Source: Paraburkholderia sp. PREW-6R
GTDB lineage: Bacteria > Pseudomonadota > Gammaproteobacteria > Burkholderiales > Burkholderiaceae
Direction: 5' to 3'
NCBI RefSeq assembly: GCF_039621805.1
Contig: NZ_CP155073.1
Coordinates: 1,178,001 to 1,242,000, forward strand
DNA length: 64,000 nucleotides
The stretch's first letter is position 1, and each line of letters starts with the position of its first letter. Positions 10,038-26,246 of this stretch are shown one piece after another. The translations under genes and the position numbers were made by a program. Below the pieces are notes generated by a model. That model was not told the DNA's origin. It made no database searches and worked only from the letters and a program-made list of their open reading frames with translations.

Positions 10038-11219
10038 ATGCCATCGAGGATTTTGTCGATATTCGGCACGCGGCCAGAAGCCATCAAAATGGCGCCGCTC
10101 GTCAAACAACTTGAAGCCTGCAGCGAAATCGAGTCGATTGTCTGCGTGACTGGCCAGCATCAACAGATGCTCGATCAGGTGCTCGATCTGTTCGCGATCG
10201 AGCCGCATCACAATCTCGCGCTGATGACCGGCAACCAGACGCTCAATGGTTTAGCCTCGCGCCTGATCGCCGCGCTCGAAGACGTGCTGGCCGCCGTCGC
10301 GCCGGACCGCGTGCTGGTGCATGGCGACACGACCACGGCGTCGGCAGCTGCGCTTGCCGCGTTTCACCGCCGCATTCCGGTAGGCCACGTCGAAGCGGGG
10401 CTTCGCACAGGCAATCTGATGCAGCCCTGGCCGGAGGAGATGAACCGCCGCGTGGTGGATGTGATGAGCGACCTGATGTTCGCGCCCACCGCCAGCTCGA
10501 AGGCGAATCTTGCACGCGAGGCCTTGCACGGCAAGGTGATCGTTACCGGCAACACGGTCATCGACGCACTGAATCTGACCACCGAGCGCATCGACGGCGA
10601 CGCCACCTTGCGCGCCGAACTCGACGCGCGCTTTCCGTTCCTCGACGGCGCATTGCCGGTGCTGCTCGTGACGGGCCATCGCCGCGAGAGTTTCGGCGCG
10701 GGCTTCGCAAACATCTGCGCGGCGCTCGCTGATCTCGCGAAAACCAACGCGGTGCAGATCGTCTATCCAGTCCATCTGAATCCGAACGTGCGTGGCCCCG
10801 TGCAGGAATCGCTTGGCGACGCGCGTAACGTGCACCTGATCGAGCCGCTCGATTACCTCGGTTTCGTGCGCCTGATGCAGCGCGCGTCGATCATTCTGAC
10901 CGACTCGGGTGGCGTGCAGGAAGAGGCGCCGGCGCTCGGCAAACCGGTGCTGGTCATGCGCGACGTGACCGAGCGTCCTGAAGCCGTGGAGGCCGGCACG
11001 GTGCGTTTAGTTGGCACGGAGCGCGAGTCGATCGTGCGGGCGGTAACCGCGCTACTCGACAGCGCACGCGAGCGCGAAGCCTTCGCGCGCCGCATCAACC
11101 CGTATGGCGATGGCCACGCGTCGCAACGGATCGTCGCGGCGCTGACCGGGCGTCCGTTCGACGAATTTGCGCACGGCGATGCCGACGGCACCGCGAACGG
11201 CCAGGTCGCCATTCGCTGA
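10038..11219 (+). CDS. wecB: UDP-N-acetylglucosamine 2-epimerase (non-hydrolysing)
   Basis: A 393-residue epimerase interconverting UDP-GlcNAc and UDP-ManNAc in the cytoplasm. Family signatures are intact: FGTRPEAIKMAPLVK at the N terminus, GDTTTASAAALAAF, HVEAGLRTG, PEEMNRR, TGHRRESFG and TDSGGVQEEAP. The start is the ATG at 10038, where family similarity begins; the frame is open upstream to 9783 without homology. It is the first gene of the polysaccharide locus, 262 bp before the BcsB-like gene. In E. coli the wecB gene was also found as nfrC, needed for phage N4 adsorption together with nfrA and nfrB, so its presence beside nfrB/nfrA-like genes makes functional sense: it should supply UDP-ManNAc to the NfrB-like transferase. 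Confidence 0.93.
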   Translation: MPSRILSIFGTRPEAIKMAPLVKQLEACSEIESIVCVTGQHQQMLDQVLDLFAIEPHHNLALMTGNQTLNGLASRLIAALEDVLAAVAPDRVLVHGDTTTASAAALAAFHRRIPVGHVEAGLRTGNLMQPWPEEMNRRVVDVMSDLMFAPTASSKANLAREALHGKVIVTGNTVIDALNLTTERIDGDATLRAELDARFPFLDGALPVLLVTGHRRESFGAGFANICAALADLAKTNAVQIVYPVHLNPNVRGPVQESLGDARNVHLIEPLDYLGFVRLMQRASIILTDSGGVQEEAPALGKPVLVMRDVTERPEAVEAGTVRLVGTERESIVRAVTALLDSAREREAFARRINPYGDGHASQRIVAALTGRPFDEFAHGDADGTANGQVAIR

Positions 11220-11481
11220 CGCGAGCGCCCCCACGTCGCACGGCAAGGCTTGGGCCGGCTTGCCCGTTGCGACAGGGCGGTATTTGCGTCGATTGTCTTC
11301 GCCATGTGACGCGGGCTGGATTCAGTGAATGGCCGCCCGCGCCGATAACACATTCAGGACCCCTGGAAAGACGGATCGAACCGGCCACAGCCCCCGGCAT
11401 CACGTCTGGCTTGCCGTTCCCGATTATTCCTGTGCCACGCATGCCGGGTTTTCCGCTTGCGCCTCAAACTAGAGAAAAAAC

Positions 11482-13800
11482 GTGATTTTCGAAACGTCAG
11501 CGCGCCGCCACACGCGCATCAAACTGAATCTGCTTGCCGCATCGCTGCTGCTTGCCGGAACGACCTCCGCTCAGTCCCAGAGTCAGGCGCAGACCCCACC
11601 GCAGTCTCTCGCTCGTTCCCAAGCTCAAGCTCAAGCGCAGGCTCAGTCCGGCGCTCAAGCCCAGCCACAAGCCCAGCCACAGGCTCAGCCACCCGCCGAC
11701 ATTGCCGCCAGTTTCGCGCAAGCCGGCAGCGGCCGTCTTGCGACACGCACGGTCTCGCTCGCCGAACTCGGCATGCGCGATCCGATCGTGCTGCATGCGC
11801 CAGACGGGCGTCAGGAACTCTATCTGCCGGTGCCCGCCGGCGTGGCGCTCAGTGACGCCACCCTGCAGATCGACGGCAGCTACCTGCGCGGCAACGGCGG
11901 ACGCACGACCATGCTGGTGTCGCTCGACGGCTCGCCAGTACTGTCGCGCAGTCCCACCCAGGATCAGGGCGACGGCTCGGCGAGCATCGGCGTGGATGGC
12001 GCAGCGCGCGCCAACGGTTTCGTGCGCGTGGGTCTCGACTGGTCGTCGGTCATCAGCGACAACATCTGTACCGATCAGACCGCGATCGGCAATGTCTGGC
12101 GCATCGCGCCAAGCTCGCGACTGACGTATCGCTACGATCCGGACTCGGTGGTCGATCTGCGCAGCGCGTGGAGTGCCCTGCCGCACAAGCCGGTCGTGAT
12201 GCTCGGCGCGCGCGCGCTCGCCGCGCCCGCCTTCGACGCAGGCTGGCGCGTCGAAGCGCTGCTGCAGCGCGAAGGACGCGCGCCGCTCACCCGCGCATGG
12301 CCGGTGGCAGGCGACACCGTGGACCTGACCGGTATCGACGTGCCGGCGCCGCTGCGCGCGATCCCGGCGTTTGCCGCGCTCGCCACGGGCGGCTCGCACA
12401 AGCTCGCGAATCCGGCGGAAGCGGGCGCGCTGGTCTTGCTCACGCCGCGCTCCGGCTTCGCGCCGGACGTGATTGTCGCCGACGATGCGCTGCGCGACAC
12501 ATTGAAGACGTCGCTCGACGCGTTGCGCGACCAGGTCGCGAGCGTCCAGCCGAATGCCGCCGATGCGTTCGACGCGTGGCGTGCCCGCGCGATCGCTCCG
12601 ATCGTGCAGCCGCTGGCTTCCGGCGAAGTGCGGCTCGCGCATCTCGGCGGCCAGACCGCGATCGTGGTGAGCGATGACGACGGCGTCGCGGTACTGGCGC
12701 GCACGTGGCGTCCGATCGACGTGACGAGCCGCCTCGTCGTGCATCAGCTCGACAATGCGCCGAACGCACGCGGCGATGAAATCGCGCTGTCGCTGCTCGG
12801 CGGCGAGCCGCGCACGCTCGACGTTCAGGGGCGCGCCACGTGGGACGCCAGTTTCGACCTCGGTGCGGCATCGGGCAACGGCAAACTGCCGGGCGCCGTG
12901 GTGCTGGACGTGGCCGCATCGCCCACGTCGAACAACAGCGCGCAGACGGCGTCGGTTTATTTCAACGACGTGCTGATCGGCTCGCAACTGCTCGCCGCGA
13001 ACGGCAAGCCGCAGCGGATCACCGCGCATGTGCCGCATTACGCGCTCGCGCCGAACAATCTGCTGCGCGTCGTGTTCCAGCGTCAGCCGGACGGCGGTTG
13101 CCAGCCGCGCGATCTGGGCCATCCGGTCGCCGTGTTGCCGAGCAGCCATCTGACGCTCGTCGACGCAAAGATCGACGACGACTTCACCGGCATGGTGGCG
13201 CGCTTCGCATCGGAAGCAAATGTGATCGTGCCGGCCGCCTATCTGAAGGACGCCACCGACGTGCTGCCGCGTGTCGCACGCCTCGCGAACGCAAGCGGCA
13301 TTGCGCCGACGCGCGCTAACTTCAGCGTCGCGAAAGACGGCGAGGCGGTGAGCCCCAAAGGCGCGTTCCTCGCCGCCGACGTTACGCTCGCCGACGAAAA
13401 GGCGCTCGCGCATCTGTCGAAAGACCGGCTTTCGCTGACCGACGCGTCGGGCAGGATGCTCGCGGACGTGTCGGGCCTGAACCGCGTGGGCGTGATCGAA
13501 GCGGTGAAGTCGGGCACCGTACCCGGCATCGTGTATCGCACCGTGGGCGACACCGCGGCGATCCTGCCGGCTTCGCTGCAACTGTCGCGCGGCGACGTGG
13601 CGATCGTGGACGGCAGCGGCACCTTGCGCCAGTTCGATACGCGTCATCCCGGCGAAGTGGTGCAAGCCGAAGACGCCGACAGCCCGTGGCTGATGCGTGA
13701 CTGGCTGCGTTGGGGCATCCCGGCGGCGCTCGTCGGCCTGCTGATGCTGTTGCTGCTGATCGCCAACGTGGCGCGTCGCAGGAATCGGGACAAGTCGTGA
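11482..13800 (+). CDS. BcsB-like periplasmic cellulose-synthase-type subunit
   Basis: A 772-residue exported protein related to BcsB, the periplasmic partner of bacterial cellulose synthase. It has a signal peptide (LLAASLLLAGTTSAQS), a Gln/Ala/Pro-rich repetitive linker at residues about 30-71, beta-rich carbohydrate-binding-type modules, the BcsB-like segment NICTDQTAIGNVWRI followed by PSSRL, and one C-terminal membrane anchor (GIPAALVGLLMLLLLIA) with a basic tail. Length is close to normal BcsB (about 780). Its GTG start at 11482 follows a purine-rich AGAGAAAAAA stretch. The stop overlaps the GTG of the NfrB-like gene (GTGA), so the two are translationally coupled. Here it likely forms the periplasmic tunnel for the NfrB-like synthase instead of BcsA. 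No bcsA, bcsC or bcsZ is in the window. Confidence 0.85.
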   Translation: MIFETSARRHTRIKLNLLAASLLLAGTTSAQSQSQAQTPPQSLARSQAQAQAQAQSGAQAQPQAQPQAQPPADIAASFAQAGSGRLATRTVSLAELGMRDPIVLHAPDGRQELYLPVPAGVALSDATLQIDGSYLRGNGGRTTMLVSLDGSPVLSRSPTQDQGDGSASIGVDGAARANGFVRVGLDWSSVISDNICTDQTAIGNVWRIAPSSRLTYRYDPDSVVDLRSAWSALPHKPVVMLGARALAAPAFDAGWRVEALLQREGRAPLTRAWPVAGDTVDLTGIDVPAPLRAIPAFAALATGGSHKLANPAEAGALVLLTPRSGFAPDVIVADDALRDTLKTSLDALRDQVASVQPNAADAFDAWRARAIAPIVQPLASGEVRLAHLGGQTAIVVSDDDGVAVLARTWRPIDVTSRLVVHQLDNAPNARGDEIALSLLGGEPRTLDVQGRATWDASFDLGAASGNGKLPGAVVLDVAASPTSNNSAQTASVYFNDVLIGSQLLAANGKPQRITAHVPHYALAPNNLLRVVFQRQPDGGCQPRDLGHPVAVLPSSHLTLVDAKIDDDFTGMVARFASEANVIVPAAYLKDATDVLPRVARLANASGIAPTRANFSVAKDGEAVSPKGAFLAADVTLADEKALAHLSKDRLSLTDASGRMLADVSGLNRVGVIEAVKSGTVPGIVYRTVGDTAAILPASLQLSRGDVAIVDGSGTLRQFDTRHPGEVVQAEDADSPWLMRDWLRWGIPAALVGLLMLLLLIANVARRRNRDKS

Positions 13801-15989
13801 GCATCGCGCTGATCAAATGGTATGCGGGCTACGCCGTCGCCCACTACTACGAAGGGCTCGAGTACGTCGCGGCGGCGGTGGCGGCCATCATTCTGCTGTC
13901 CAGCATCGACGATCTGTTCATCGACGCATGGTACTGGGTCCGTACGCTGTACCGCCGCCTGACGGTGCAGCGCACGTACAAGCCGCTCACCACTGCGCAG
14001 CTCTATCAGCGCGAAGAACAGCCGATCGCGATCATGGTGCCCGCGTGGCACGAGTACGACGTGGTCGCGGCGATGATCGAGGACCTAGTTCGCGTGATGG
14101 ACTACCGCAATTACGTGGTGTTCGTCGGCACGTATCAGAACGATCCGGAGACCATCGCCGAAGTGGAGCGCATGCGCCGCCGCTACAAGCAGTTGCGCCG
14201 CGTGGAAGTGCCGCACGACGGGCCGACCTGCAAGGCCGACTGCCTGAACTGGGTCATCACGGCGATCTTCAAGTACGAGCGTGAAGCCGCGATCGAATTC
14301 GCCGGGGTCGTGCTGCACGATAGCGAAGACGTGCTGCACCCGCTCGAACTGAAATTCTTCAACTATCTGCTGCCGCGCAAGGACATGATCCAGTTGCCGG
14401 TGGCGTCGCTGGAGCGCAACTGGTTCGAACTCGTGGCCGGCACCTATATGGACGAGTTCGCCGAGTGGCACGCCAAGGACCTCGTGGTGCGCGAAAGCCT
14501 GGTCGGCTCGGTGCCGTCCGCGGGTGTGGGCACCTGCTTCTCGCGGCGCGCGCTGCTCGCGCTCGTCGCGGAAACGGGCAACCAGCCGTTTAATACCGAG
14601 AGCCTCACAGAAGACTACGATGTCGGCGCGCGCCTCGGCAAGCTCGGCATGCAATCGATCTTTGCGCGCTTTCCCGTGCAGTTCGCCACGCGCCGCAAGG
14701 CGTGGTTCGGCCTCGGCAAGGAACGCGACATCACGGTGACGATGCCGCTGTGCGTGCGCGAGTTCTTCCCGGATACCTTTCGCACTGCCTACCGGCAACG
14801 CGCGCGCTGGACGCTCGGCATCGGCCTGCAAGGCTGGCAGCAGACCGGCTGGAGCGGCTCGCTCGCGAACCGTTACCTGCTGGCGCGCGACCGCAAGGGA
14901 ACCGTCACTGCGTTCGTCGGCATCATTGCGTATGTCCTGGTGATCCAGTTCCTGCTGTTCGCGCTCGCCGGTCTGCTCGGCTGGATGCCGGAGCTGATCG
15001 CGTCGCCGTTCTCCGATGCGGGCTGGCTGCAGGCGCTGCTGTACGCCAATGGCTGCGCGCTGGTGTTGCGCGTCGTGCAGCGCGTGTACTTCGTGACCCG
15101 CCTGTACGGCTGGGAGCACGGTGTGCTGAGCGTACCGCGCATGGTAGTGGCGAACTTCATCAACTTCATGGCGGTCTCGCGCGCGTGGAAGATGTTCATC
15201 ACGCACCTCGTCACGGGCAAGCGGCTGGCATGGGACAAGACCATGCACGACTTTCCGTCCGCGGACGGTTTCAACAATCGCCGTCAACGGTTGGGTGAAC
15301 TGCTGCTCTCCTGGCAGGCCATCGATCCAGACAGACTCGAGCAGGCGCTCGGTGAAAGCCACGCGCGCGAAGCGCCGCTTGGCCGCGTGCTGATGGCCAA
15401 AGGCTGGCTCGACGAGGAAACGCTCGCGGAAGCGATCGCATTTCAGGCCGATCTGCCGCGTGGGCGTTTGTACGCCGAAAAGCTTCAGGAGGACGCCGCA
15501 CGGCTGCCGCTCGAAGCCATCGTGCGCTATCGCGTGTTGCCGCAGACCGACCCGGCCAACGGCCGCACGGTTCTGCTTACCGCGAGCCCGCTCGCCGAGC
15601 CTGCTCTTGCCGAACTGAGCGCGTTGATGCCGGGAACGTTCGTGCAGGAGATCGTGCGCGAAGGCGAGATCGCAGCGGGCTTGCGGCTGCTGCGTGGTGT
15701 CGGCGTCGCGACGCCCATGGTCGACGGCGCGCAGGCGCCCGAAGCGGCCGCGCCGATGCATGACGAACACGCGCCGGCGCGCAGTGTGCCGCTGATCGGC
15801 GATCTGCTGATCGAGAACGGTCACGTCAGGCGCGGGGACTTCGAGGCAGCCATGCAGCACTACCGTCCGGACCGCCACGGTTTGATCGGGGACTACATGG
15901 TGGCGCGCGAAGTGATTTCTCGCGCCGCACTCGATAACGTAATCCAGCAACAGCGCCGCCTGCAGGGCGCTCCGACGGCATCCGAATGA
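13797..15989 (+). CDS. nfrB: NfrB-like processive glycosyltransferase with C-terminal MshEN region
   Basis: A 730-residue inner-membrane glycosyltransferase of the bacteriophage N4 adsorption protein B type. After an N-terminal membrane segment comes a GT2-type domain with HDSED (D175-D178), TEDYD (D273) and the QRARW motif (334-338) of processive synthases, then further membrane helices (residues about 375-430). From about residue 495 a RLGELLL...PLGRVLMAKGWLDEETLAEAIAFQ pattern marks an MshEN (T2SSE N-terminal) domain, and a second similar repeat occupies residues about 660-715. MshEN domains bind c-di-GMP, and E. coli NfrB is activated by c-di-GMP through such a domain. The GTG start overlaps the BcsB-like stop. 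The probable donor is UDP-ManNAc from WecB; this substrate is inferred. Confidence 0.9.
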   Translation: MSIALIKWYAGYAVAHYYEGLEYVAAAVAAIILLSSIDDLFIDAWYWVRTLYRRLTVQRTYKPLTTAQLYQREEQPIAIMVPAWHEYDVVAAMIEDLVRVMDYRNYVVFVGTYQNDPETIAEVERMRRRYKQLRRVEVPHDGPTCKADCLNWVITAIFKYEREAAIEFAGVVLHDSEDVLHPLELKFFNYLLPRKDMIQLPVASLERNWFELVAGTYMDEFAEWHAKDLVVRESLVGSVPSAGVGTCFSRRALLALVAETGNQPFNTESLTEDYDVGARLGKLGMQSIFARFPVQFATRRKAWFGLGKERDITVTMPLCVREFFPDTFRTAYRQRARWTLGIGLQGWQQTGWSGSLANRYLLARDRKGTVTAFVGIIAYVLVIQFLLFALAGLLGWMPELIASPFSDAGWLQALLYANGCALVLRVVQRVYFVTRLYGWEHGVLSVPRMVVANFINFMAVSRAWKMFITHLVTGKRLAWDKTMHDFPSADGFNNRRQRLGELLLSWQAIDPDRLEQALGESHAREAPLGRVLMAKGWLDEETLAEAIAFQADLPRGRLYAEKLQEDAARLPLEAIVRYRVLPQTDPANGRTVLLTASPLAEPALAELSALMPGTFVQEIVREGEIAAGLRLLRGVGVATPMVDGAQAPEAAAPMHDEHAPARSVPLIGDLLIENGHVRRGDFEAAMQHYRPDRHGLIGDYMVAREVISRAALDNVIQQQRRLQGAPTASE

Positions 15990-18559
15990 TCCAGACAGTT
16001 TTTGAACAGCGCGCGGCAATGGCGTGCGCTTCGCGGGCAGCTTCGGCAACCACAGCGTCATCGGCACCGGCCATCGCGCCCGCACGGGCGTTTCCGTTGC
16101 GCGCAGCGACCGCCGCGCTGATGGCCGGCGCGCTGTGCCTCGGCCGCACCGCATCTGCGCAAGCCACGGACGCGATACCGGTGCTTGCCGCATCTGTGGA
16201 GGAGCCGTTGCCGCTGAGCGGCGCGGCTTATCGCGTGGCGCAGGACGCTTACGCCGCCTACGGCCGCGGCGACTACGCCACTGCGGTCTCGCGCGCGCGC
16301 GAAGCGATTCGCCAGCGGCCCGACGTGGTGTCGTTGCGCGTGCTGCTCGCCAATTCACTGGCCGCGCAACGTCGCTATAACGAGGCGAGCCGCTCGCTCG
16401 GCGACGCCATCGCGACGATCGGCCATCACCCCGCGCTGGTGTTGCGCCGCAAGCAGATCGACGCGCTGAATGCGTCCACGCGTGCCGTGGCGCGAGGCGG
16501 CCGCCCGTTGCCGGGCGACCCGGATGCGCTGCGCGGTCCCGCGCTCGTCGCCGCGCAGCAGGCCTACAAGGCCTATGCCGCGAAAGACTTCGTGGGCACG
16601 GTGAAATACGCGAACGAGGCAATCGCGCTGCGGCCCGACCTGTTGCGCCTGCGTCTGCTGCTGATCGACGCGGCGAGCGCCGCCGGTCAGGACGCCGATG
16701 CATGGCACGCCGACCTCGAAGCCACTCGACGTTTCGGCGACAACGAAGATTTGCGCGTACGCCGCAGCTTCATCGGCAGCCGCCTCGCGCCGAAGGCGTC
16801 GGGCGACTCGTATGCGGCGCGCAAGAAGGGCGATGACGCCCGCGCGACGGCGCTCGCGCGCCAGGCAGTAGCCTATGCGCCGGATCTGGTGGGCTACCGC
16901 ATCCAGCTGATCGACACGCTGTTCGCCGCGAACGATCTGGCGGGCGTGCAGGCGGCCGCGACCGATGCAATCACCGCGGACAGCACGGAAATCATGCCCT
17001 TCGTGTTGCGCGGCTATGCACTGGCCGCGCAGGGCAAGATCGACGAAGCCGACGCGGATTTCGCACAGGCGTTGAAGTCGAAAGATGCGACCGCGCGCAA
17101 CAGGCGGGTGGCGAGCGTGGTCATCGCCGACGTATGGCTCGCCGAAGGGCGGCCGCAGCGCGTGCTCGACGTGCTCACTCCGCTAAAGACCGTCGGCGAC
17201 GACACGGACCCGCCGATCGCATTGCGCCTCGCGCAGGCGCGCAGGATGCTGGCGCGGGGGCAGGCTTCTGCGACGCCTGTCGATCCCGCACGTCGCCCCG
17301 TGATCGACTGCGTCGTCGACCAGTTCGGCGCCAGTTGCGACGTCTATGCGGCCGATCCTGGTTTCGCGGCGGCACGCGCGGCGAGTCTCGCCGCTGCCGC
17401 CAACGACAAGACCCGCGCCGTCGGCTTCGCACGCGAAGCGGTGAAGGAGGCGCCGGACGATCCGCAGCATCGCGTGGAACTGATCAACGCGCTCAGCGCG
17501 GCGGGCGACGACCGCGCCGCGGCACGCGAAGCGCACAGCATGATCGACGCCGGCATGCTCGACGCGATGCCTGACATGACGGCGGCGTACATTGCATCGC
17601 GCGCCGGCGACGAGCGCGTCGCTTACCAGCGCTTCGCGATGGCCGACAAGGCCGGCACGTTGCCCGCGAGCGCGGATGCCGACGCCGGCTATGCCGCGGT
17701 GAACGCGCATCGCAATCGAGAGGCCGCGCAGTATTTCGGGCGCGCGATCGACAACGGTGCGCAACCGACCGACGACACGCCCGCGGCCACGCCCGCGCAA
17801 CTGAACGACATCCGCAGCGCGCACGCCGAGGCCACGCGCGACTGGGGCTTCGACGCGTCGGTCAATTATCGTGGCGCGGGCATGCAGCCGGGCTTCGCGT
17901 CGTCGCCGACACCCGGCACGTCGAATAACTGGCAAAGCGGTGTGGAAGCATACTGGCGGCCGTTCGGCAGCCTCGGCGACCGGATGTTCGAACTCTACGC
18001 GCGCGGTTATGAAAGTTTCGGTGTGAAGAGCGGGCCGAGCGGCGTGTCGACGTTGCAAGGTTCGGTGGGCGCGCGCGCCAAGCCGTTTTCTCAGATCGAC
18101 GCGATTGTCGCGTTCGAGCGGATCATTCCGGTCGGCTCGGCGGTGCGTCCCGACTGGCTCGCGCGCCTCGCGTATTCGGGTGGTGTAGGTATCGAACGCC
18201 GCGTGGATGTGCCGTCATGGTGGACCGCGCAACTCTATGCGGAAACGGGCGCGTATCTGAACGCCGGTTCCGTGTACGGCACGACCAATCTCGAAGTGGG
18301 CCGCACGTTCCGCATGGACCGTTATAGCCCGAAGTGGACTGTGTTCCCGTATGCGGTGATCGGTGCGGACTATGACTCGAGCATCGATCACAGCTTCCCG
18401 GTCGGCGCCGGCGTCGGCATTTCGACGCGCTACTGGATGCGCGACGGCAAATACGATGCGCCGCGCTCTTACATCGATCTGTCGCTGCAATACCGGCTGA
18501 AAATCACCGGCGACGATCGTGCGCGCGGGGTGTTCTTCGGCCTGATCTACTCGTATTGA
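15986..18559 (+). CDS. nfrA: NfrA-like TPR and outer-membrane barrel protein
   Basis: An 857-residue exported protein. A signal peptide lies at residues about 35-60 (LRAATAALMAGALCLGRTASAQA). Residues about 75-560 contain TPR-like repeats with a recurrent pattern (YAAYGRGDYATAVSRAREAI; YKAYAAKDFVGTVKYANEAI; ARATALARQAV; KTRAVGFAREAV). Residues about 640-857 are Tyr/Gly-rich alternating beta strands ending in an aromatic residue (GLIYSY), as in outer-membrane barrels and the NfrA C-terminal domain. This is the architecture of NfrA (phage N4 receptor component), BcsC and PgaA, which export polysaccharide. It overlaps the NfrB-like stop by ATGA. It is shorter than E. coli NfrA (about 990). Expected role: periplasmic scaffold and outer-membrane exit. 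Confidence 0.85.
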   Translation: MIQTVFEQRAAMACASRAASATTASSAPAIAPARAFPLRAATAALMAGALCLGRTASAQATDAIPVLAASVEEPLPLSGAAYRVAQDAYAAYGRGDYATAVSRAREAIRQRPDVVSLRVLLANSLAAQRRYNEASRSLGDAIATIGHHPALVLRRKQIDALNASTRAVARGGRPLPGDPDALRGPALVAAQQAYKAYAAKDFVGTVKYANEAIALRPDLLRLRLLLIDAASAAGQDADAWHADLEATRRFGDNEDLRVRRSFIGSRLAPKASGDSYAARKKGDDARATALARQAVAYAPDLVGYRIQLIDTLFAANDLAGVQAAATDAITADSTEIMPFVLRGYALAAQGKIDEADADFAQALKSKDATARNRRVASVVIADVWLAEGRPQRVLDVLTPLKTVGDDTDPPIALRLAQARRMLARGQASATPVDPARRPVIDCVVDQFGASCDVYAADPGFAAARAASLAAAANDKTRAVGFAREAVKEAPDDPQHRVELINALSAAGDDRAAAREAHSMIDAGMLDAMPDMTAAYIASRAGDERVAYQRFAMADKAGTLPASADADAGYAAVNAHRNREAAQYFGRAIDNGAQPTDDTPAATPAQLNDIRSAHAEATRDWGFDASVNYRGAGMQPGFASSPTPGTSNNWQSGVEAYWRPFGSLGDRMFELYARGYESFGVKSGPSGVSTLQGSVGARAKPFSQIDAIVAFERIIPVGSAVRPDWLARLAYSGGVGIERRVDVPSWWTAQLYAETGAYLNAGSVYGTTNLEVGRTFRMDRYSPKWTVFPYAVIGADYDSSIDHSFPVGAGVGISTRYWMRDGKYDAPRSYIDLSLQYRLKITGDDRARGVFFGLIYSY

Positions 18560-18563
18560 ACGC

Positions 18564-19595: not shown

Positions 19596-20624
19596 ATGAC
19601 TGATTCCAGCAGTTCGTTTCAACCGCCGTCTGTTCATGCTCGAGCCGTCGACAGCGGCCGCCGCCGCCTGTTGCTCACGCTGGCCGCCGCGCCGTTCGCC
19701 GGTGCAGTCTCAATGATGCCGCGCCGCGCGCTGGCAGCGGCTTCGTCGAGCGTGATCGAGGGCCGCAATCTGTGGCTCTATCCCGGCTGGGAAAGTCTCA
19801 CCGACGACGCCACCGCCGATTGCCTGAAAGCGATCGACCTGATCCATCAAACCACGGACAAGCTCGCCGCGCGCGGCATTCGCAGCGTGATCGTGGTCGC
19901 GCCGCTAAAAGGGCGGGCGTGCGCGGAAAATCTGCCGGCCGGCGTCGCGTTGTCCGACGGCGTCACGAAGCGCTTTGCCGCCATGCGCGCGCAGGCCGCG
20001 TCGTTAAATCTGGCGCTTGTCGATTCGGTCGCGGCGATTGCCGGCGTCGACGCATCGCAGGAAAAATACATTCGCGCCGACTACCACTGGAGCGGCCATT
20101 CCGCCGAGGCGGTTGCGTCGCGCGTCGCCAAACGGCTGGCCGGCATGGGGCCGCTGAAGGGCAGTGCGGGTTCGGGCACGCGACTCGGCAAGTGGAACGA
20201 AGAAGTGCGCTATGGCGACCTCGCGGCGCTGCTGCCGCCGGATAAAAAGCAGGCGGTCGGCAAGGATCATTTCATCGTGCGCTCGGCGGGCGCGTCGCCG
20301 GGTCTCGTCGACGGCGGTGCGCCAGTCGTGCAGGTGGTCGGCAACAGCATGGTGCAGCCCTACCTCGGCTTTCCGCAGAAGCTCTCCAATGCGATCGACC
20401 GCCCGGTCGGGCTCACGTGGACGTTCGGCGACACCGGCCCGTGGAAGACGTTGCTCAACTATCTGGAGTCGCCCGCATATAAGGCCAATCCACCGCAGGC
20501 GATCGTCTGGCAGTTCAACGAAGGGCAGATGATGAACCTGCCGTCCGCGGCCGGGCAATGGGACGCCACGTCCGTGATGTCCGAGGACGCTTTCCTCGCG
20601 CGCGTGACAAAGGCGACGGCCTGA
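19596..20624 (+). CDS. AlgJ/AlgX-like SGNH-type acyltransferase (first copy)
   Basis: A 342-residue exported protein of the AlgJ/AlgX family, periplasmic SGNH-like enzymes that move acetyl groups onto polysaccharide. It has a twin-arginine-like leader (GRRRLLLTLAAAPF with ALAAA cleavage site). The catalytic Asp-His pair appears as DYHWSGHSAE (D162, H164) and the nucleophile serine as VVGNSMV (S251). The DxHW motif is the typical signature. The ATG at 19596 is preceded by GGGG and A-rich sequence. It is separated from the AlgF-like gene by a repeat-containing gap, and its stop overlaps the start of the next AlgJ-like gene (TGATG). Confidence 0.82.
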   Translation: MTDSSSSFQPPSVHARAVDSGRRRLLLTLAAAPFAGAVSMMPRRALAAASSSVIEGRNLWLYPGWESLTDDATADCLKAIDLIHQTTDKLAARGIRSVIVVAPLKGRACAENLPAGVALSDGVTKRFAAMRAQAASLNLALVDSVAAIAGVDASQEKYIRADYHWSGHSAEAVASRVAKRLAGMGPLKGSAGSGTRLGKWNEEVRYGDLAALLPPDKKQAVGKDHFIVRSAGASPGLVDGGAPVVQVVGNSMVQPYLGFPQKLSNAIDRPVGLTWTFGDTGPWKTLLNYLESPAYKANPPQAIVWQFNEGQMMNLPSAAGQWDATSVMSEDAFLARVTKATA

Positions 20625-21850
20625 TGAGCGAGTCAGTCGGACGACGCGCGGCACGCACGGAGGCCGCTGCGCAGGGCCCGACCGCGCCGACGACGCAGGC
20701 CGCCGCGCGCGCACACCGGCGCGTCGCATGGCTCGTCGCGTTGCTGCTCGGCGCGGGCTGCGTGGCCGCGCTGACGTCGCTTTTTATGCAGGCGCGCGAT
20801 GGCGTGTCGTCCGCCGCGCCTGTCGACGCGCGCGGCTGGCGCGACGGCAGTCTGGGCCGCAGCATCGACCGCGCGATCGACGTGCCGTACGCCGCCACGC
20901 TGCACCGCTGGCAGGCGGCGGCCCGCTATCGCCTGTTCGGCGACCTCGGGCGGCAGGTGCGCGAGGGCTGCCCCGGCTGGCTGTTCTACGCGGATGGTCT
21001 GAGCGCGCCGGTGCAACCGGGTCATGATCCCGTCGAACGCACGGACGGCGGCGATGGGCTGACCGACGCACGCATCGCCACGCTGCATCGCTACGCCGAC
21101 GCGTTGCGTGGCATGGGTATCCAGTTGCTGGTGGTGACGGTGCCCGACAAGGCGCGCGTGGAAAGCGAAGCGCTATGCGGGCTTCGGCAGGACGCGCGCA
21201 TGACGCAGCGTCTGACCGTCTGGAATCGCGCGCTAGATGCCAGCGGCGTTGCGCATGTGAATCTGTTGCCCGCGTTGCAGGCCGCGCGGCCCGCATACTT
21301 CCGCACGGACGTGCATTGGAACGCGCGCGGCGCGCAAGCGGCTGCGCGGGTAGTGGGCGCGGCCGCGCTGCCCATGCTGGGCAAGCGCGGCGACACGCTC
21401 TTTGCACACACGGCGACGCCGCCCGCACCGCGTGTCGGCGATCTGCTCACGCTCGCGAATCTCGACAAGGTGTCCGACGCATGGCGTCCCGCACCCGACA
21501 TGGTGGCCGTGCAGACGTTGCACGCGCAACGAAGCGGCGGCCTGCTCGACGACGCGCCTTCGGCCGACGTGTTGCTCGCGGGCAGTTCGTTCTCGCGGCG
21601 CAGTGCATTTGCCGAACGGCTCGGCGAGCAGCTCGGCCGCGAAGTGTGGAACGTGAGCGTGGACGACGGGCAGTTCGACCGTGCGCTGCAGGCCGTGTGG
21701 CGCGAGCGCGCGACATGGCCGAAAAGTGTGCGCGTGGTGATCTGGGAGATGTCGGAAGACGCGCTGTCAATGCCGGCCGATACCGCCGCTACCCATGCCG
21801 CCGCCATTGCCACGACCGCTGCTTTCGCACCCGTCGCGAGCAAGGACTGA
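20624..21850 (+). CDS. AlgJ/AlgX-like SGNH-type acyltransferase (second copy)
   Basis: A 408-residue protein anchored by one N-terminal membrane helix (residues about 34-52, VAWLVALLLGAGCVAALTSL) with the rest in the periplasm. The signatures are TDVHWNARG (D229, H231) and LLAGSSFSRRS (S321), matching the AlgJ catalytic triad. The N-terminal 30 residues are Ala/Thr-rich. It overlaps the first copy and sits 5 bp before the MBOAT gene. Two AlgJ-like proteins beside one MBOAT parallel the AlgJ plus AlgX arrangement of alginate, where one relays acetyl and the other transfers it to polymer. Similarity of role to DltD (which also has a membrane anchor and SGNH-like fold) is equally possible. Confidence 0.82.
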   Translation: MSESVGRRAARTEAAAQGPTAPTTQAAARAHRRVAWLVALLLGAGCVAALTSLFMQARDGVSSAAPVDARGWRDGSLGRSIDRAIDVPYAATLHRWQAAARYRLFGDLGRQVREGCPGWLFYADGLSAPVQPGHDPVERTDGGDGLTDARIATLHRYADALRGMGIQLLVVTVPDKARVESEALCGLRQDARMTQRLTVWNRALDASGVAHVNLLPALQAARPAYFRTDVHWNARGAQAAARVVGAAALPMLGKRGDTLFAHTATPPAPRVGDLLTLANLDKVSDAWRPAPDMVAVQTLHAQRSGGLLDDAPSADVLLAGSSFSRRSAFAERLGEQLGREVWNVSVDDGQFDRALQAVWRERATWPKSVRVVIWEMSEDALSMPADTAATHAAAIATTAAFAPVASKD

Positions 21851-21855
21851 CGCCC

Positions 21856-23514
21856 ATGCTATTCAACTCGTTCATCTTCCTCACGCTGTTCCTGCCGCTC
21901 GCGCTGGTTGGCTACTATCTGCTTGGTCAGCGCCTGCCGCGCGCGGCGGCCGCGTGGCTGTGCGGCGCGTCGATCGTGTTTTACGGTTGGTGGACGCCGG
22001 CATTCGTCGGCCTGCTGCTGGGTTCGATCGTATTCAACTACGCAATGAGTTGCGCGATCGTCGCCGCACCCGCTCAGTCCGCGCGACGTCGCAGGCTGCT
22101 TGCTTTCGCCATCACGGCCGACCTCGCGCTGCTGGTGCGCTACAAATATCTGGCAACGCTGCTCACGACGCTCGTGCACGCCAGCGGGATTGCGCCTCAT
22201 GGCTGGATCGAGCACGGAATGCACGAGGTCATTTTGCCGCTCGGCGTATCGTTCTTCACGTTCACGCAAATCGGCTATCTGCTCGATTGCAATGCAGGGA
22301 TCGTGAAGCAACGCGACCCGCTCGGGTATGTGCAATTCGTCACGTTCTTTCCACATCTGATCGCAGGGCCGATCCTGCATCACAAGGAAATGATGACGCA
22401 ATTCGCGCAGCCGTCCACGTACCGGCTGAAAGCCGAGAATCTGTCGGTTGGCGCGTTCGTCTTCACGATCGGACTCGCGAAGAAGGTGCTATTTGCCGAC
22501 ACGATCGCGCCGTTCGCCGACGCGGGGTTCGCCGCGCCGCATGAATTGCAGGGATTCGCCGCGTGGGGCACGTGCATAGCCTACGCGCTGCAGCTCTATT
22601 TCGACTTCTCCGGCTATTCGGACATGGCCGTCGGGCTCGCGAAGATGTTCGGCGTGCGCTTTCCGCTCAATTTCAATTCGCCGTTCAAGGCGGCCAGCAT
22701 CATCGATTTCTGGCAGCGCTGGCACATGACGCTTACGCGTTATCTGACCGCCTATCTGTACTACCCGATGGCGATGCGCATCAATCGCCGCCGGGCATTG
22801 CGCGGCTTGCCGATTGGCCGCCTCGCGCAACGTTCGACGAGCGGCTTTCTGTCCACCGTCGCGTTACCGACCTTCTACACGATGGCGCTCGCCGGCGTGT
22901 GGCACGGCGCGGGTCTGCAGTATCTGATCTATGGGCTGCTGCACGCTGCCTATCTGACCGTGAATCACGCGTATCGCGCGTGGCGTGCTTTTCCGCTGGC
23001 TTCTTCTCCGACAGTATCCGCGAACCCTGCCGCGACCGCTTCCGCGAAGCGTCAGCCGGCAGCAAAGGCGCTTGGCGCCCGCGTTCGCCACATGGTCAAC
23101 GTGCTACTGACCTTCGTTGCCGCACTTGTCGCGTTCGCCTTTTTCCGCGCGCACGGAGTCGGCGATGCACTTGCGCTGCTGCAAGGCATGGCAGGCTTTC
23201 ACGGCTTCGAGTCACCGGGCTGGCCGGCCTGGGACGCCGCCGGTATGGACTTCGGCGCATGGCTGCATCTGGTTGCAGGCCGTTCGACGCTCGCGCTGCT
23301 GATCGCCGGGATGTTGCTGATCGTCTGGTGCGCGCCGAACTCGCATCAGTTGATGGGACGCTTTTCGCCCGCGCTGGAGCGCGCGGCCGAAGGTGTGCCC
23401 GCCTCGCTAACGTGGCGGCCGTCGCTGCGCTGGAGCATCGCGATGGTTGGCATGCTGGTGTTCTGCGTCGCGCAGTTGCACGGCGAAGTGCGTTTCCTTT
23501 ACTTCCAGTTCTGA
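21856..23514 (+). CDS. MBOAT family O-acyltransferase (AlgI/DltB-like)
   Basis: A 552-residue multi-spanning membrane protein. The N terminus LFNSFIFLTLFLPLALVGYYLL and PLGVSFFTFTQIGYLLD are MBOAT landmarks; DFWQRWHMTLTRYLTAYLYYP and GVWHGAGLQYLIYGLLHA carry the conserved His residues (catalytic H350 equivalent). AlgI passes acetyl groups and DltB passes D-alanyl groups across the inner membrane. The start is the ATG at 21856. Because a DltC-like carrier protein and DltA-like ligase follow immediately, the donor here is more likely a carrier-bound acyl or aminoacyl group than acetyl-CoA. Confidence 0.93.
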   Translation: MLFNSFIFLTLFLPLALVGYYLLGQRLPRAAAAWLCGASIVFYGWWTPAFVGLLLGSIVFNYAMSCAIVAAPAQSARRRRLLAFAITADLALLVRYKYLATLLTTLVHASGIAPHGWIEHGMHEVILPLGVSFFTFTQIGYLLDCNAGIVKQRDPLGYVQFVTFFPHLIAGPILHHKEMMTQFAQPSTYRLKAENLSVGAFVFTIGLAKKVLFADTIAPFADAGFAAPHELQGFAAWGTCIAYALQLYFDFSGYSDMAVGLAKMFGVRFPLNFNSPFKAASIIDFWQRWHMTLTRYLTAYLYYPMAMRINRRRALRGLPIGRLAQRSTSGFLSTVALPTFYTMALAGVWHGAGLQYLIYGLLHAAYLTVNHAYRAWRAFPLASSPTVSANPAATASAKRQPAAKALGARVRHMVNVLLTFVAALVAFAFFRAHGVGDALALLQGMAGFHGFESPGWPAWDAAGMDFGAWLHLVAGRSTLALLIAGMLLIVWCAPNSHQLMGRFSPALERAAEGVPASLTWRPSLRWSIAMVGMLVFCVAQLHGEVRFLYFQF

Positions 23515-23547
23515 AGACCGGAACGACGTTTTCATCAGGATAAAAAT

Positions 23548-23784
23548 ATGACTCAAAACGATACGTTGCGCGCCGAGGTGGCCTCGCTCGTCGAATCTGT
23601 CGTGCTGCGGCCCGTGCAGGATGACGAACTGCTGCTCGAAACCGGGCTGGTCGACTCCGTGCTCGCGGTGGAGATCGTGATGGGCGTCGAGATGCAATTC
23701 GGCGTGCGCATTCCGCCGACTGAAATTGCCGAACACCTTGCTTGCGTCGATGCGCTGTGCGCGTTCATCGACGCGAATCGCTAG
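23548..23784 (+). CDS. acyl/aminoacyl carrier protein, DltC-like
   Basis: A 78-residue four-helix carrier protein. The phosphopantetheine attachment serine is S37 in GLVDSVLAVEIV, the DSx motif of carrier proteins; the flanking ETGLVDS and FGVRIPPTEIAEH resemble DltC more than fatty-acid ACP, although the modified motif is DSV rather than DSL. It lies 33 bp after the MBOAT gene and 7 bp before the adenylating ligase. A 4'-phosphopantetheinyl transferase from elsewhere is needed to activate it. Confidence 0.88.
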   Translation: MTQNDTLRAEVASLVESVVLRPVQDDELLLETGLVDSVLAVEIVMGVEMQFGVRIPPTEIAEHLACVDALCAFIDANR

Positions 23785-23791
23785 ACCCCTG

Positions 23792-25297
23792 ATGCGATTC
23801 GATCTGAGCGCAAGCCGCTTCGTTGAAACCGGCGATCGTGCCGACGGGGAAGCCGACACGCTCGCGGTGATCGGCGCCGACCGCGCATTGCACTGGCGCG
23901 AACTCGCTGCGCAGGCACATGACTGGGCCGGCCACGCACGCACGTGCGGAATCGCCGCCGATGTGCCGGTGATCGTGCGAGGTCACAAGGAGGCGGCTTT
24001 TTTTGTCGCAATGACCGGTGCGTTGCTGCTCGGCGCGCCATTCGTGCCCGTCGATACGATCTATCCGGATGAGCGGTTGCGGCGCATCGCCGCCACACTC
24101 GGCGCGCAGATCTACTACGACGCGCAGCGCGAGCGTTTTGTCGATCTCGCCGGACACGAAGTGTCCTGCGAAGCGGCGCGGGCCTGTGCGCCGCAACCGC
24201 TGCGGGAGAAAAATCTCGCTTACGTGCTGTTCACGTCGGGGACGACCGGCGAGCCGAAAGGCGTGCAGATCGGCCGCGAAAGCGTGGCTGCGCTCGCCTG
24301 CTGGATGGTGGAAGATTTCGCGCTCGGCGATTCGCCGGTGTTCCTGAATCAGGCGCCGTTCAGTTTCGATCTGTCGATGTACGAAGTATTCGGCACGCTT
24401 GCGCTCGGCGGCACGATCGTACTGGCCTCGCGTTCGCTGACCGCGCAAAGCGGCACATTTCTCGCCGCGCTCGCGCGTCACCGCGTCGACACATGGGTGT
24501 CCACGCCGTCTTTCGCGCAGCAGCAGTTGCTCAATTCGCAACTCTCCCGGGAAGGGCTGCCGTCGCTGGCGACGTTTCTGTTCTGTGGCGAAGTGCTGCC
24601 CGCCGCGCTCGTTCGGCAGTTGCGTCAGCGCTTTCCGTCGGCGCGCATCATCAATACTTACGGACCGACCGAGGCGACGGTCGCCACGACATGGATCGTC
24701 GTGGACGACAAGGTGCTCGCGGAGCACGCGCGTCTGCCCGTCGGCTACGCCAGACGCGACGCCGAAGTGTTCGTGGATGATGGCGAGTTATGTATTGCGG
24801 GTCCGCACGTGATGCGCGGCTATCTGAACCGCGACGACCTGAACGCGTCGCGCATGTTCATGCATCATGGCCAGCGCGCGTTTCGCACGGGCGACCTCGG
24901 CGCGGTGGAGGGCGACGGCCTGCTCTTTTGCAATGGCCGCATGGACGACCAGATCAAGATGGGAGGTTACCGGATCGAGCTGATGGAGATCGACGCGGCG
25001 TTGCGCGCGTTGCCGGGCGCCGCCAGCGCGGCGGTGGTGCCGCTGCGGCGACCCGACGGCTCGGTCGCGCGGATCGTTGCATTCGTCGCGACCGGCGACG
25101 ACGACGGCCGCTTGCCCGACGCGCTGCACGACTGGAAGGCCAGGCTGGCAGAGCGGCTGCCGTCGTATATGATCCCGTCAGAATTGCTTGCCTGCCGCGC
25201 GTTGCCGGTATCGGTGAACTTCAAGATCGATCGCGCGCAACTTGCCCAGGATTATCGTGACGCCCATCTCAACACACAGCGCCAACCGCGTGCATAG
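23792..25297 (+). CDS. DltA-like carrier-protein aminoacyl ligase (adenylation domain)
   Basis: A 501-residue stand-alone adenylation enzyme, length equal to DltA. Core motifs: A3 LFTSGTTGEPKGV (about 145-157), A4 FSFDLSMYEVF, A5 NTYGPTEATV, A7 RTGDLG, A8 MGGYRIELMEID and A10 VNFKIDR (Lys about 477). The DltA-type specificity segment FLFCGEVLP keeps the Cys that in Bacillus DltA contacts the D-alanine side chain, and the Asp of FSFDLS that binds the amino group is present. This favours D-alanine activation and loading onto the adjacent carrier protein; another small amino acid remains possible. Start at ATG 23792, 7 bp after the carrier-protein stop. The next gene overlaps its 3' end. Confidence 0.87.
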   Translation: MRFDLSASRFVETGDRADGEADTLAVIGADRALHWRELAAQAHDWAGHARTCGIAADVPVIVRGHKEAAFFVAMTGALLLGAPFVPVDTIYPDERLRRIAATLGAQIYYDAQRERFVDLAGHEVSCEAARACAPQPLREKNLAYVLFTSGTTGEPKGVQIGRESVAALACWMVEDFALGDSPVFLNQAPFSFDLSMYEVFGTLALGGTIVLASRSLTAQSGTFLAALARHRVDTWVSTPSFAQQQLLNSQLSREGLPSLATFLFCGEVLPAALVRQLRQRFPSARIINTYGPTEATVATTWIVVDDKVLAEHARLPVGYARRDAEVFVDDGELCIAGPHVMRGYLNRDDLNASRMFMHHGQRAFRTGDLGAVEGDGLLFCNGRMDDQIKMGGYRIELMEIDAALRALPGAASAAVVPLRRPDGSVARIVAFVATGDDDGRLPDALHDWKARLAERLPSYMIPSELLACRALPVSVNFKIDRAQLAQDYRDAHLNTQRQPRA

Positions 25298-26207
25298 TGC
25301 GCGCGGCGCTGGCCCGAACAGGCCGGAGCCCGACTCGCCGCGCCGCCGCGCCTTGCTCGCTGCGGGCATGGGCGCGGCGTTGCTGTACGGCTGCTCGGCG
25401 CCGGGCCCGGGCGATGGCGGTGCGCTCGCACAGGGCGTCGTCTGGCAACTCGACGAGGATCATGTCGACCCGCATGGCGAGTGGAACCGCCTGGGCGTGA
25501 CAGACCTGCTGATTCAGTGGACGGCCGTGGACGACACGTCGTTTCTGCCGGTCGGCGAAGCGCAGGCGGCCGCCGGTTTGCGAAGCGCCGCGCGTTCGCC
25601 GGACTGGACGCGCATTGCCGCTGAGCCGTGGGCACGTAATGTGATCGTCGGCCTCGCGGGGCGGTTCGACGAAACGTCGGCGCGTGCGCAGGCGGCGCAA
25701 CTGATCGAACAGTCGAGAAAGCTCGCGGCCGTGCGGCCCGCGTTGCATGTCGACGGATACTATTTTCCGGTGGAGATCGATCCGACCTGGCAACGCGCGG
25801 CGGCGCTCGGGCCGTTGCTCGACGCGCTGCCGCGGCCGTTATGGATCAGCGTGTACGACAACACCAACATCGGCGGCACGGCGCTCGCGGCGTGGCTCGA
25901 TGGCTGGTTGCCGCATCACGTCGGCGTCTTTCTGCAGGACGGCTGCGGAGTTTACGCGCGCGGTCCGTCGGCGGCGCGCGGCTATGCGGACGCGCTGGCA
26001 GCACGGCTTGGCAACGAGCGGGTGCGGATCATCGCCGAAGCGTTCCGCCCGGCCGAGGGCGGCGCGTTCCGGCCGGCTACCGCGGCCGAACTTGCGCCCC
26101 AGCTGTTCGCGTATCGCGGTTACCGGACCTATCTGTTCGACGGTCCGCACTATGTGTCGCCGCAACTCGTACAAGACCTGCTGGATCTGCAGGCGGCGGA
26201 GAACTAA
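25257..26207 (+). CDS. lipoprotein with possible TIM-barrel glycosidase fold (DUF4434-like)
   Basis: A protein of about 316 residues with a lipoprotein-type signal, PRRRALLAAGMGAALLYGC, where LYGC is the lipobox; the RRR also resembles a Tat leader. The mature part has repeated beta/alpha units: VVWQLDED, GVTDLLIQW, VIVGLAGRFD, LHVDGYYFPVEID, LWISVYDNTN, VGVFLQDG and VRIIAEAF, in the order expected of a TIM barrel, with an acidic residue at several strand ends. I suspect DUF4434 or a related glycoside-hydrolase clan but cannot confirm it. Starts at 25242 (TTG), 25257 (GTG) or 25290 (GTG) all overlap the ligase end. As last gene of the locus it could trim or release the polymer. Confidence 0.7.
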   Translation: MTPISTHSANRVHSARGAGPNRPEPDSPRRRALLAAGMGAALLYGCSAPGPGDGGALAQGVVWQLDEDHVDPHGEWNRLGVTDLLIQWTAVDDTSFLPVGEAQAAAGLRSAARSPDWTRIAAEPWARNVIVGLAGRFDETSARAQAAQLIEQSRKLAAVRPALHVDGYYFPVEIDPTWQRAAALGPLLDALPRPLWISVYDNTNIGGTALAAWLDGWLPHHVGVFLQDGCGVYARGPSAARGYADALAARLGNERVRIIAEAFRPAEGGAFRPATAAELAPQLFAYRGYRTYLFDGPHYVSPQLVQDLLDLQAAEN

Positions 26208-26246
26208 TACGGTTGATCGCGTGTGTGAAGGGTCTCGCCTCGGGCC

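What the first reader, a model, noticed from the sequence alone, without database searches (positions are those of the whole stretch)
10038..26207. Hybrid polysaccharide locus joining Nfr-type synthesis, BcsB, alginate-type acylation and a Dlt module
Eleven same-strand genes, mostly overlapping or closely spaced, encode WecB, BcsB-like, NfrB-like with MshEN, NfrA-like, AlgF-like, two AlgJ-like, MBOAT, carrier protein, DltA-like ligase and a lipoprotein. Established: in E. coli NfrA/NfrB with WecB make the c-di-GMP-controlled ManNAc glycan used by phage N4; alginate uses AlgF/I/J/X for O-acetylation; Gram-positive Dlt uses DltA-DltC-DltB-DltD for D-alanylation. Inference: this is one pathway for a secreted ManNAc-type polymer carrying aminoacyl groups. 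I know of no description of this exact combination.
Basis: partly seen in the sequence, partly recalled or inferred. Interest (0 to 1): 0.93.

Follow-up and report, generated by a model that had tools for sequence, protein, structure and literature searches.

The report
Swappable acyl-decorating cassette on exopolysaccharide locus
A bacterium, probably a Paraburkholderia, has a gene block predicted to make a secreted sugar polymer, fitted with a six-gene cassette that is predicted to attach D-alanine to it; relatives have lost the cassette or carry a different one, which likely changes the coating of a surface sugar of the kind that phages use as a receptor in other bacteria.

Summary
WecB-BcsB-NfrB-NfrA-YbcH is the core; the six genes between nfrA and ybcH are a cassette. 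Three relatives keep the core with only 25-47 codons of the ligase left at that place. Other relatives carry a second ligase type with a different pocket, FkbH plus carrier (predicted glyceryl donor), or an acetyl-type module without carrier. One locus joins a type I core to a type II nfrA-plus-cassette. The window's ligase matches the common DltA code at 9 of 10 pocket positions, so D-alanine is the predicted substrate. It is not a full Dlt module: no DltX or DltD was found, and the MBOAT lies outside the DltB clade and ends in FLYFQF, the acyl-shuttle hexapeptide (45 of 45 Nfr-linked MBOATs; 0 of 56 from other dlt loci). A carrier-fed pathway with a built-in shuttle is the new point. Nfr loci with WecB, BcsB and acetyltransferases were already published. 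Polymer and ester chemistry are untested.

The parts
10038..11219 (+). wecB: UDP-GlcNAc 2-epimerase, predicted UDP-ManNAc supply
   Evidence: TIGR00236 466 bits
11482..13800 (+). bcsB-like: likely periplasmic partner of the synthase, with a C-terminal hydrophobic stretch
   Evidence: PF03170 39.3 bits, cut-off 21; no PDB match by sequence
13797..15989 (+). nfrB: GT2 polysaccharide synthase with C-terminal MshEN region; start GTG at 13797 chosen by eye
   Evidence: PRK15489 1084 bits; 41% identical to E. coli NfrB; HD[AST]ED, TED and QxxRW in 89 of 89 NfrB compared
15288..15446 (+). c-di-GMP-binding (MshEN-type) motif inside nfrB
   Evidence: NF053729 71.8 bits, cut-off 38; Pfam MshEN below its cut-off
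15986..18559 (+). nfrA: likely outer-membrane export protein with TPR repeats
   Evidence: PF13283 176 bits; match to E. coli NfrA E=6e-9
18564..19301 (+). algF-like: first gene of the acylation cassette, likely adaptor
   Evidence: PF11182 40.4 bits, cut-off 34.4
19596..20624 (+). sgnh1: AlgJ/AlgX-family SGNH protein with DxH and Ser motifs
   Evidence: PF16822 162 bits; AlgJ 4o8v E=7.4e-15; motifs in 14 of 14 rows
20624..21850 (+). sgnh2: AlgJ-family SGNH protein with an N-terminal hydrophobic stretch, likely receives the group from the MBOAT
   Evidence: PF16822 207 bits; AlgJ 4o8v E=4.8e-15; motifs in 13 of 13 rows
21856..23514 (+). MBOAT acyltransferase
   Evidence: PF03062 80 bits; WHG motif in 13 of 13 rows; carrier-linked clade 99/98
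23494..23511 (+). FLYFQF: C-terminal acyl-shuttle hexapeptide (FXYXXF) of the MBOAT
   Evidence: motif defined in PMC12148441
23548..23784 (+). carrier protein with the GLVDSV phosphopantetheine site (Ser at 23656-23658)
   Evidence: PF00550 34.1 bits; best PDB match DltC 6bug E=3.4e-5
23792..25297 (+). DltA-like ligase with pocket code DLYSLCTVAK
   Evidence: best PDB matches DltA 3e7w and 3dhv, 314 bits; code
25290..26207 (+). ybcH homologue: lipoprotein-like signal and predicted TIM barrel of glycosidase type; start GTG at 25290 chosen by eye

Best explanation
This locus joins an NfrB/NfrA/WecB/BcsB/YbcH core, likely for an exopolysaccharide, to a six-gene cassette that would charge a carrier protein with D-alanine and likely pass it through an MBOAT with its own FLYFQF tail and two SGNH proteins onto the secreted polymer. 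Steps. (1) WecB would make UDP-ManNAc, NfrB with BcsB would polymerise and extrude it under c-di-GMP control, and NfrA would export it (inferred from E. coli). (2) The DltA-like ligase would adenylate D-alanine and load the carrier (pocket residues shown, activity inferred). (3) The MBOAT would move the group to the Tyr of FLYFQF (motif shown, chemistry inferred from PatA and DltX). (4) The membrane-anchored SGNH2 and then SGNH1, coordinated by AlgF, would form the ester on the polymer (inferred from alginate). (5) YbcH, with a glycosidase-like predicted fold, would trim or guide the polymer, like PgaB (inferred). The cassette is missing, reduced to a ligase remnant, or replaced by other kinds in relatives (shown).
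For: Same eleven-gene order in the window and 20 other loci. Loss: L119, L120 and L126 keep the whole core with only 25, 47 and 42 codons of the ligase's C-terminus between nfrA and ybcH; L120 and L140, which has the cassette, are sisters in the NfrB tree (SH-aLRT 89) with end branches near 0.02. Exchange: L010's wecB, bcsB and nfrB go with type I loci, its nfrA-to-algF genes with type II; one clade of all type II/III NfrB is rejected, p-AU 1.4e-5; in the four-gene cassette tree L010 with type I is rejected, p-AU 8.2e-5. Substrate: code DLYSLCTVAK differs from the commonest DltA code DLMSLCTVAK only at position 239; the Cys is in 48 of 48 ligases of the Gram-positive and other dlt set. Shuttle: FLYFQF ends 41 of 41 cassette MBOATs and 4 of 4 more in FkbH-type nfr loci, against 0 of 56 MBOATs of other dlt loci, 43 of which have another ORF ending FxYxxF. 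In a tree of 38 chosen MBOATs the 18 linked to a carrier form one clade 99/98 and the 5 of carrier-less loci another. Best PDB relative of the carrier is DltC.
Against: No chemistry or expression data. The ligase scores below both NCBI DltA cut-offs (409 against 476; 400 against 560). Position 239 is Tyr, not the usual Met. The MBOAT test of L010 with type I alone was not significant (p-AU 0.106). TIGR04091 scores cassette MBOATs (171-183), the acetyl-type one (155) and a standalone DltB (210) too alike to separate them. 29 of 32 cassette-free junctions tested hold no ligase remnant, so loss is shown for three only and the others may never have had a cassette. In G038 (draft, 70% complete) the ligase follows sgnh1 directly, without sgnh2, MBOAT or carrier between; an MBOAT of 54% identity lies on another contig. 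ManNAc is itself only proposed in E. coli. Most stretches examined have no cassette (61 of 106, with L023 and L147 moved), so decoration is not needed for the core to persist.
Confidence: 0.68

Rival explanations
1. Same machine, different group: the ligase activates another small amino acid (glycine, L-alanine, D-serine or beta-alanine) and the polymer carries that ester.
For: Tyr replaces Met at pocket position 239 in all ten distinct type I ligases coded; related type II ligases have a clearly different pocket, DFF[SC][VL]GSCSK, in 8 of 8 coded, so this ligase group does change substrate.
Against: Nine of ten pocket positions, including the Cys, equal the common DltA code; DltAs are the best solved relatives at 314 bits, against 188 for the best single-stretch chain not named as a D-alanine ligase (6p1j) and 131 for 4oxi.
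Confidence: 0.22
2. Ordinary alginate-like O-acetylation: the MBOAT uses acetyl-CoA, and ligase and carrier serve an unrelated product.
For: AlgF, two AlgJ/AlgX-type proteins and a FLYFQF MBOAT are the alginate set; published Nfr loci were read as acetylated (PMC8669469, PMC8669472). In G038 ligase and MBOAT are not neighbours.
Against: Carrier-less acetyl-type loci exist beside these, 5 of 5 with a separate MBOAT clade; in L119, L120 and L126 ligase, carrier and transfer genes are gone together, and in 20 loci and the window they stay together in order.
Confidence: 0.07
3. The group goes to another envelope acceptor (LPS, lipid or protein), as for the Bordetella dra locus, and the nfr core is a neighbour.
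For: Ligases of the same clade sit in Achromobacter loci where no nfr genes were found in the stretch (L041-L044, L070).
Against: Those loci use a different, tail-less MBOAT and another ORF ending FxYxxF; the cassette sits inside the core, between nfrA and ybcH, and nfrA changes with the cassette in type II.
Confidence: 0.06

Closest known systems
E. coli NfrBA-YbcH with WecB (NGR glycan, phage N4 receptor)
   Same: WecB, NfrB with MshEN, NfrA and YbcH homologues
   Different: E. coli K-12 has no BcsB and no acylation genes beside nfrB-nfrA-ybcH; here wecB is in the cluster
Achromobacter xylosoxidans nfr-wecB-bcsB cluster with O-acetyltransferases (Sellner 2021) and Simplicispira suum nfr cluster (Junkermeier 2021)
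   Same: Nfr core plus alginate-like transferases
   Different: The passages read mention acetyltransferases only, no carrier or ligase; Fig. S5 could not be viewed. Two other Achromobacter loci, L045 and L048, do hold carrier and type II ligase
Acinetobacter baumannii PGR locus (phage StAb3 receptor)
   Same: NfrB-, BcsB- and WecB-like proteins, PgaB-like fold protein
   Different: No acylation genes are mentioned in the section read
Gram-positive Dlt pathway and Bordetella dra
   Same: DltA-like ligase and DltC-like carrier
   Different: No DltX or DltD; MBOAT of another branch with the shuttle built in; predicted acceptor is an exopolysaccharide
Alginate acetylation AlgIJFX
   Same: AlgF, AlgJ/AlgX-type SGNH pair, MBOAT with C-terminal hexapeptide
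   Different: Predicted carrier-bound donor; PMC12148441 says such pathways lack a carrier

Membership tests
Nfr-type (NGR) exopolysaccharide system | NfrB with GT2 motifs and MshEN domain | tested here: met
   Pfam's own MshEN model is below cut-off
Nfr-type (NGR) exopolysaccharide system | NfrA outer-membrane exporter | tested here: met
   PF13283 176 bits
Nfr-type (NGR) exopolysaccharide system | WecB and YbcH homologues | tested here: met
Nfr-type (NGR) exopolysaccharide system | ManNAc polymer, c-di-GMP activation | not testable with these tools
   needs chemistry and binding assays
Dlt D-alanylation pathway | DltA ligase with D-Ala pocket | tested here: inconclusive
   9 of 10 code positions and the Cys agree, but below the NCBIfam cut-offs
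Dlt D-alanylation pathway | DltC-like carrier with phosphopantetheine Ser | tested here: met
   NCBIfam DltC models are below cut-off
Dlt D-alanylation pathway | MBOAT is DltB | tested here: not met
   TIGR04091 174 bits against cut-off 375; outside the clade of 15 dlt-locus MBOATs, 100/100
Dlt D-alanylation pathway | separate DltX microprotein | tested here: not met
   on the + strand only the MBOAT's own ORF ends in FxYxxF between 17000 and 27000 (ORFs of 25 aa or more)
Dlt D-alanylation pathway | DltD transferase | tested here: not met
   both SGNH proteins match PF16822 only in Pfam, and AlgJ/AlgX only in the PDB
Alginate-type MBOAT/SGNH acetylation | AlgF, AlgJ/AlgX-type SGNH proteins, MBOAT with FXYXXF tail | tested here: met
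Alginate-type MBOAT/SGNH acetylation | no carrier protein, acyl-CoA donor | tested here: not met
   carrier and ligase genes lie inside the cassette; donor use itself untested
Cellulose synthase BcsAB | BcsA with PilZ domain beside BcsB | tested here: not met
   BcsB-like protein is beside NfrB with an MshEN-type motif; no PilZ match to NfrB

The most novel reading that the evidence does not exclude
A family of plug-in acyl cassettes writes different chemical decorations (D-alanyl, a second aminoacyl, glyceryl, acetyl, or none) onto one c-di-GMP-controlled surface glycan. Three carrier-loading enzymes (DltA-like I, DltA-like II, FkbH) feed one lineage of MBOATs with a built-in tyrosine shuttle, and phage pressure on the glycan drives the turnover.
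Probability: 0.4. Interest if true: 0.9.

Novelty: new variant of a known kind. Interest (0 to 1): 0.79.

Why it matters
The mechanism paper consulted here (PMC12148441, abstract and passages) sets Dlt, with carrier and DltX, apart from the other MBOAT/SGNH pathways, which it says lack a carrier, use acyl-CoA and keep the shuttle on the MBOAT. This cassette has carrier and tail together, so it makes the donor question testable in an exopolysaccharide system. Close relatives with and without the cassette (L140 and L120) are natural comparison strains for asking what decoration does, including to phage adsorption. If the ester carries an amine, it would put positive charge on a biofilm polymer.

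Tried and rejected
Considered and dropped: (a) a complete Dlt module: no DltX, DltD or DltB-clade MBOAT. (b) Separate recruitment of type I and type II ligases: I plus II alone as one clade is rejected (p-AU 2.1e-6), but with type III added it is not (p-AU 0.285), so not claimed. (c) DltB against AlgI by TIGR04091 score: does not discriminate. (d) Type II substrate: pocket DFFSVGSCSK could not be assigned. (e) Promoters and terminators: 2 and 11 sites against 2.3 and 12.2 expected, uninformative. (f) FkbH as a sign of nfr: of 8 FkbH places opened out of 29 listed in 28 of 299 genomes, 4 are in nfr loci and 4 show no nfr gene in the stretch. (g) Paper searches showed no listed title or abstract start joining NfrB with DltA or FkbH; of the 16 papers none holds both NfrB and DltA. 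Subscription papers are not held. (i) Two weak sgnh1-like hits in cassette-free junctions (L159, L163; 29% over 38 aa, E 0.003 and 0.012) were not counted as remnants. (j) BcsB-like protein: no PDB relative by sequence.
Full report
What is there. The window lies in a 7.0-Mb genome of four contigs; its nearest named YbcH homologues are Paraburkholderia, so the host is probably that genus. Between 10038 and 26207, eleven + strand genes were found as described, with family or homologue support for each. Two gaps (262 nt before bcsB, 294 nt before sgnh1) leave transcription as one unit open.

The cassette. algF, sgnh1, sgnh2, mboat, acp and dltA lie between nfrA and ybcH. I mapped the genes in 106 fetched stretches with the window's proteins and added queries. 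Type I, as in the window, occurs in 24 stretches besides the window: 20 are complete and in order; L133 is complete with an interrupted nfrB; L185 is a contig piece; L132 is a decayed remnant; and L024 (G038, draft, 70% complete) has nfrA-algF-sgnh1-dltA-ybcH without sgnh2, MBOAT or carrier, with a 54%-identical MBOAT on another contig. Whether that is rearrangement or assembly is open. Type II (9 stretches) has a divergent nfrA, then sgnh1-sgnh2-mboat-acp-dltA-algF in 8 of 9 (L047 has algF first), and no ybcH was detected. In 2 Pseudacidovorax loci (type III) ligase and carrier lie on the other strand beside the cassette. Three loci (L127, L176, L177) have FkbH and a carrier in place of the ligase; NCBIfam gives L127 FkbH 316 bits against a cut-off of 147. 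Four more such nfr loci turned up in a FkbH search (L187-L190; L187 and L188 314 and 309 bits); L176, L177, L189 and L190 were judged by phmmer only. Five loci have an acetyl-type module with another MBOAT and no carrier match. The remaining 63 stretches show no cassette; two of these (L023, L147) are the other halves of loci split by contig ends, and several hold only a distant NfrB. These are not prevalences. In the genus sample NfrB was found in 59 of 144 genomes and the ligase in 17 of 144: 15 of the 17 are about 8-11 kb downstream of NfrB on the same contig and strand, one (G132) is split over contigs, and one (G174) has only remnants and no NfrB match.

Loss. In L119, L120 and L126 the core is intact, but the space between nfrA and ybcH holds only 25, 47 and 42 codons of the ligase's C-terminal end (tblastn E=5e-6, 1e-21, 4e-15). 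Different remnants suggest more than one deletion. A check of all 32 cassette-free nfrA-ybcH junctions that met the rule found a ligase remnant in these 3 and in none of the other 29. L120 and L140, which has the cassette, are neighbours in the NfrB tree with end branches of about 0.02. On that tree of 88 NfrB the cassette label needs at least 17 changes; shuffled labels need 38 on average.

Exchange. L010 is a natural hybrid: wecB, bcsB and nfrB are closest, among the 16 loci compared with it, to type I locus L014 (80, 67 and 78% identity; L012 ties for bcsB), but nfrA, algF, both SGNH proteins, MBOAT, carrier and ligase are closest to type II (best 60-73%). The NfrB tree joins L010 to six type I loci with 100/100 support; one clade of all type II and III NfrB is rejected (p-AU 1.4e-5). 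The four-gene cassette tree rejects L010 with type I (p-AU 8.2e-5) and L010 with those six loci (p-AU 3.3e-5); the MBOAT alone did not reject it with type I (p-AU 0.106). Type I NfrB are themselves not one clade (p-AU 0.001), in line with repeated gain, loss or exchange.

What is loaded. The ligase's best solved relatives are DltAs. Its ten specificity positions (positions recalled from the NRPS code, alignment) read DLYSLCTVAK in 10 of 10 distinct type I ligases coded, the same as in five Achromobacter and two Photorhabdus ligases without nfr genes in the stretch. Of 48 further ligases (L054-L069, L071-L101, L113; Gram-positive and other phyla), 48 have the Cys and 44 have Met where type I has Tyr; two enterobacterial ones (L052, L053) have Ile in place of the Cys. 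That this Cys selects D-alanine is recalled from DltA work. Type II reads DFF[SC][VL]GSCSK in 8 of 8 coded, so its substrate is likely different; type III reads DVYSVCTVAK (2 of 2). FkbH is recalled to load a glyceryl group from 1,3-bisphosphoglycerate onto a carrier; here that is a prediction.

How it would cross the membrane. PMC12148441 (abstract and passages seen) shows that PatA acylates a Tyr in its C-terminal FXYXXF hexapeptide, says that the Dlt pathway keeps this motif on the separate DltX, and says that other MBOAT/SGNH pathways lack a carrier protein. The window's MBOAT ends FLYFQF, as do 41 of 41 in the first census, window included, and the 4 in L187-L190. In 56 other dlt loci, 0 MBOATs end so and 43 have another ORF ending FxYxxF (four of the 56 ORFs look extended at the C-terminus, which blunts the test for them). 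In the window no other + strand ORF from 17000 to 27000 ends so. In a tree of 38 chosen MBOATs, the 18 linked to a carrier (17 in nfr loci and L186, FkbH-linked without nfr) form one clade (99/98) on the side of the acetyl type, apart from 15 MBOATs of other dlt loci (100/100). So a Dlt-like front end would feed an AlgI-like back end. AlgF as an interaction mediator between AlgJ and AlgX is from the abstract of PMC10641220.

What was known. Sellner 2021 (PMC8669472, passages) reported in Achromobacter xylosoxidans nfrA, nfrB and wecB clustered with a BcsB homologue and periplasmic O-acetyltransferases; Fig. S5 was not viewable. Junkermeier 2021 (PMC8669469, passages and section 11) reported an alginate-type acetyltransferase cluster within the nfr genes of Simplicispira suum. 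The PGR locus of Acinetobacter has NfrB-, BcsB- and WecB-like proteins. D-alanine addition by the Bordetella dra locus is cited in PMC4448142 (passages); that the Achromobacter standalone loci are dra is my guess. In what I read, none mentions a carrier or ligase in an nfr locus.

Verdict. A new variant of a known kind: an Nfr-type locus with a replaceable, carrier-fed acylation cassette. Gene content, order, loss, exchange and motifs are shown; sugar, acyl group, transfer steps and the effect on phages are inferred.

Noticed in passing
G000:C1:1724783-1728978 (locus L007, 4532-9000): The same genome has a second bcsB-nfrB pair (NfrB 70% identical) without nfrA or cassette in the stretch, followed by a DUF2760 gene and two Hsp70-like genes; these three were not found in the other stretches of the census.
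   Followed up: partly
G000:C2:1454975-1456813 (locus L001): A full-length BcsB (763 bits), probably of a true cellulose operon, lies elsewhere in the genome.
   Followed up: no
L127:1670-12854: This FkbH-type locus has two ybcH-like genes, one before nfrA and one after the MBOAT, perhaps a trace of cassette insertion.
   Followed up: partly
L045, L046, L048, L028, L029, L039, L040, L176: In these type II, III and FkbH loci the NfrB match ends soon after the MshEN motif (543-562 aa against about 730), so the C-terminal part is missing or diverged.
   Followed up: partly
L133:12327-14556: nfrB is interrupted by a stop while the cassette is complete; bcsB also gives only a fragment match.
   Followed up: no
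L024 (G038:C14:1-12000): A type I-like locus in which the ligase follows sgnh1 directly; sgnh2, MBOAT and carrier are absent there and an MBOAT of 54% identity lies on contig C58.
   Followed up: partly
L186:8003-11762: FkbH, carrier and a FLYFQF MBOAT occur together without nfr genes in the stretch fetched, so this donor system may serve other polymers.
   Followed up: partly
window 26980-27870: Just downstream is an ArgP/LysG-type regulator (402 bits).
   Followed up: no
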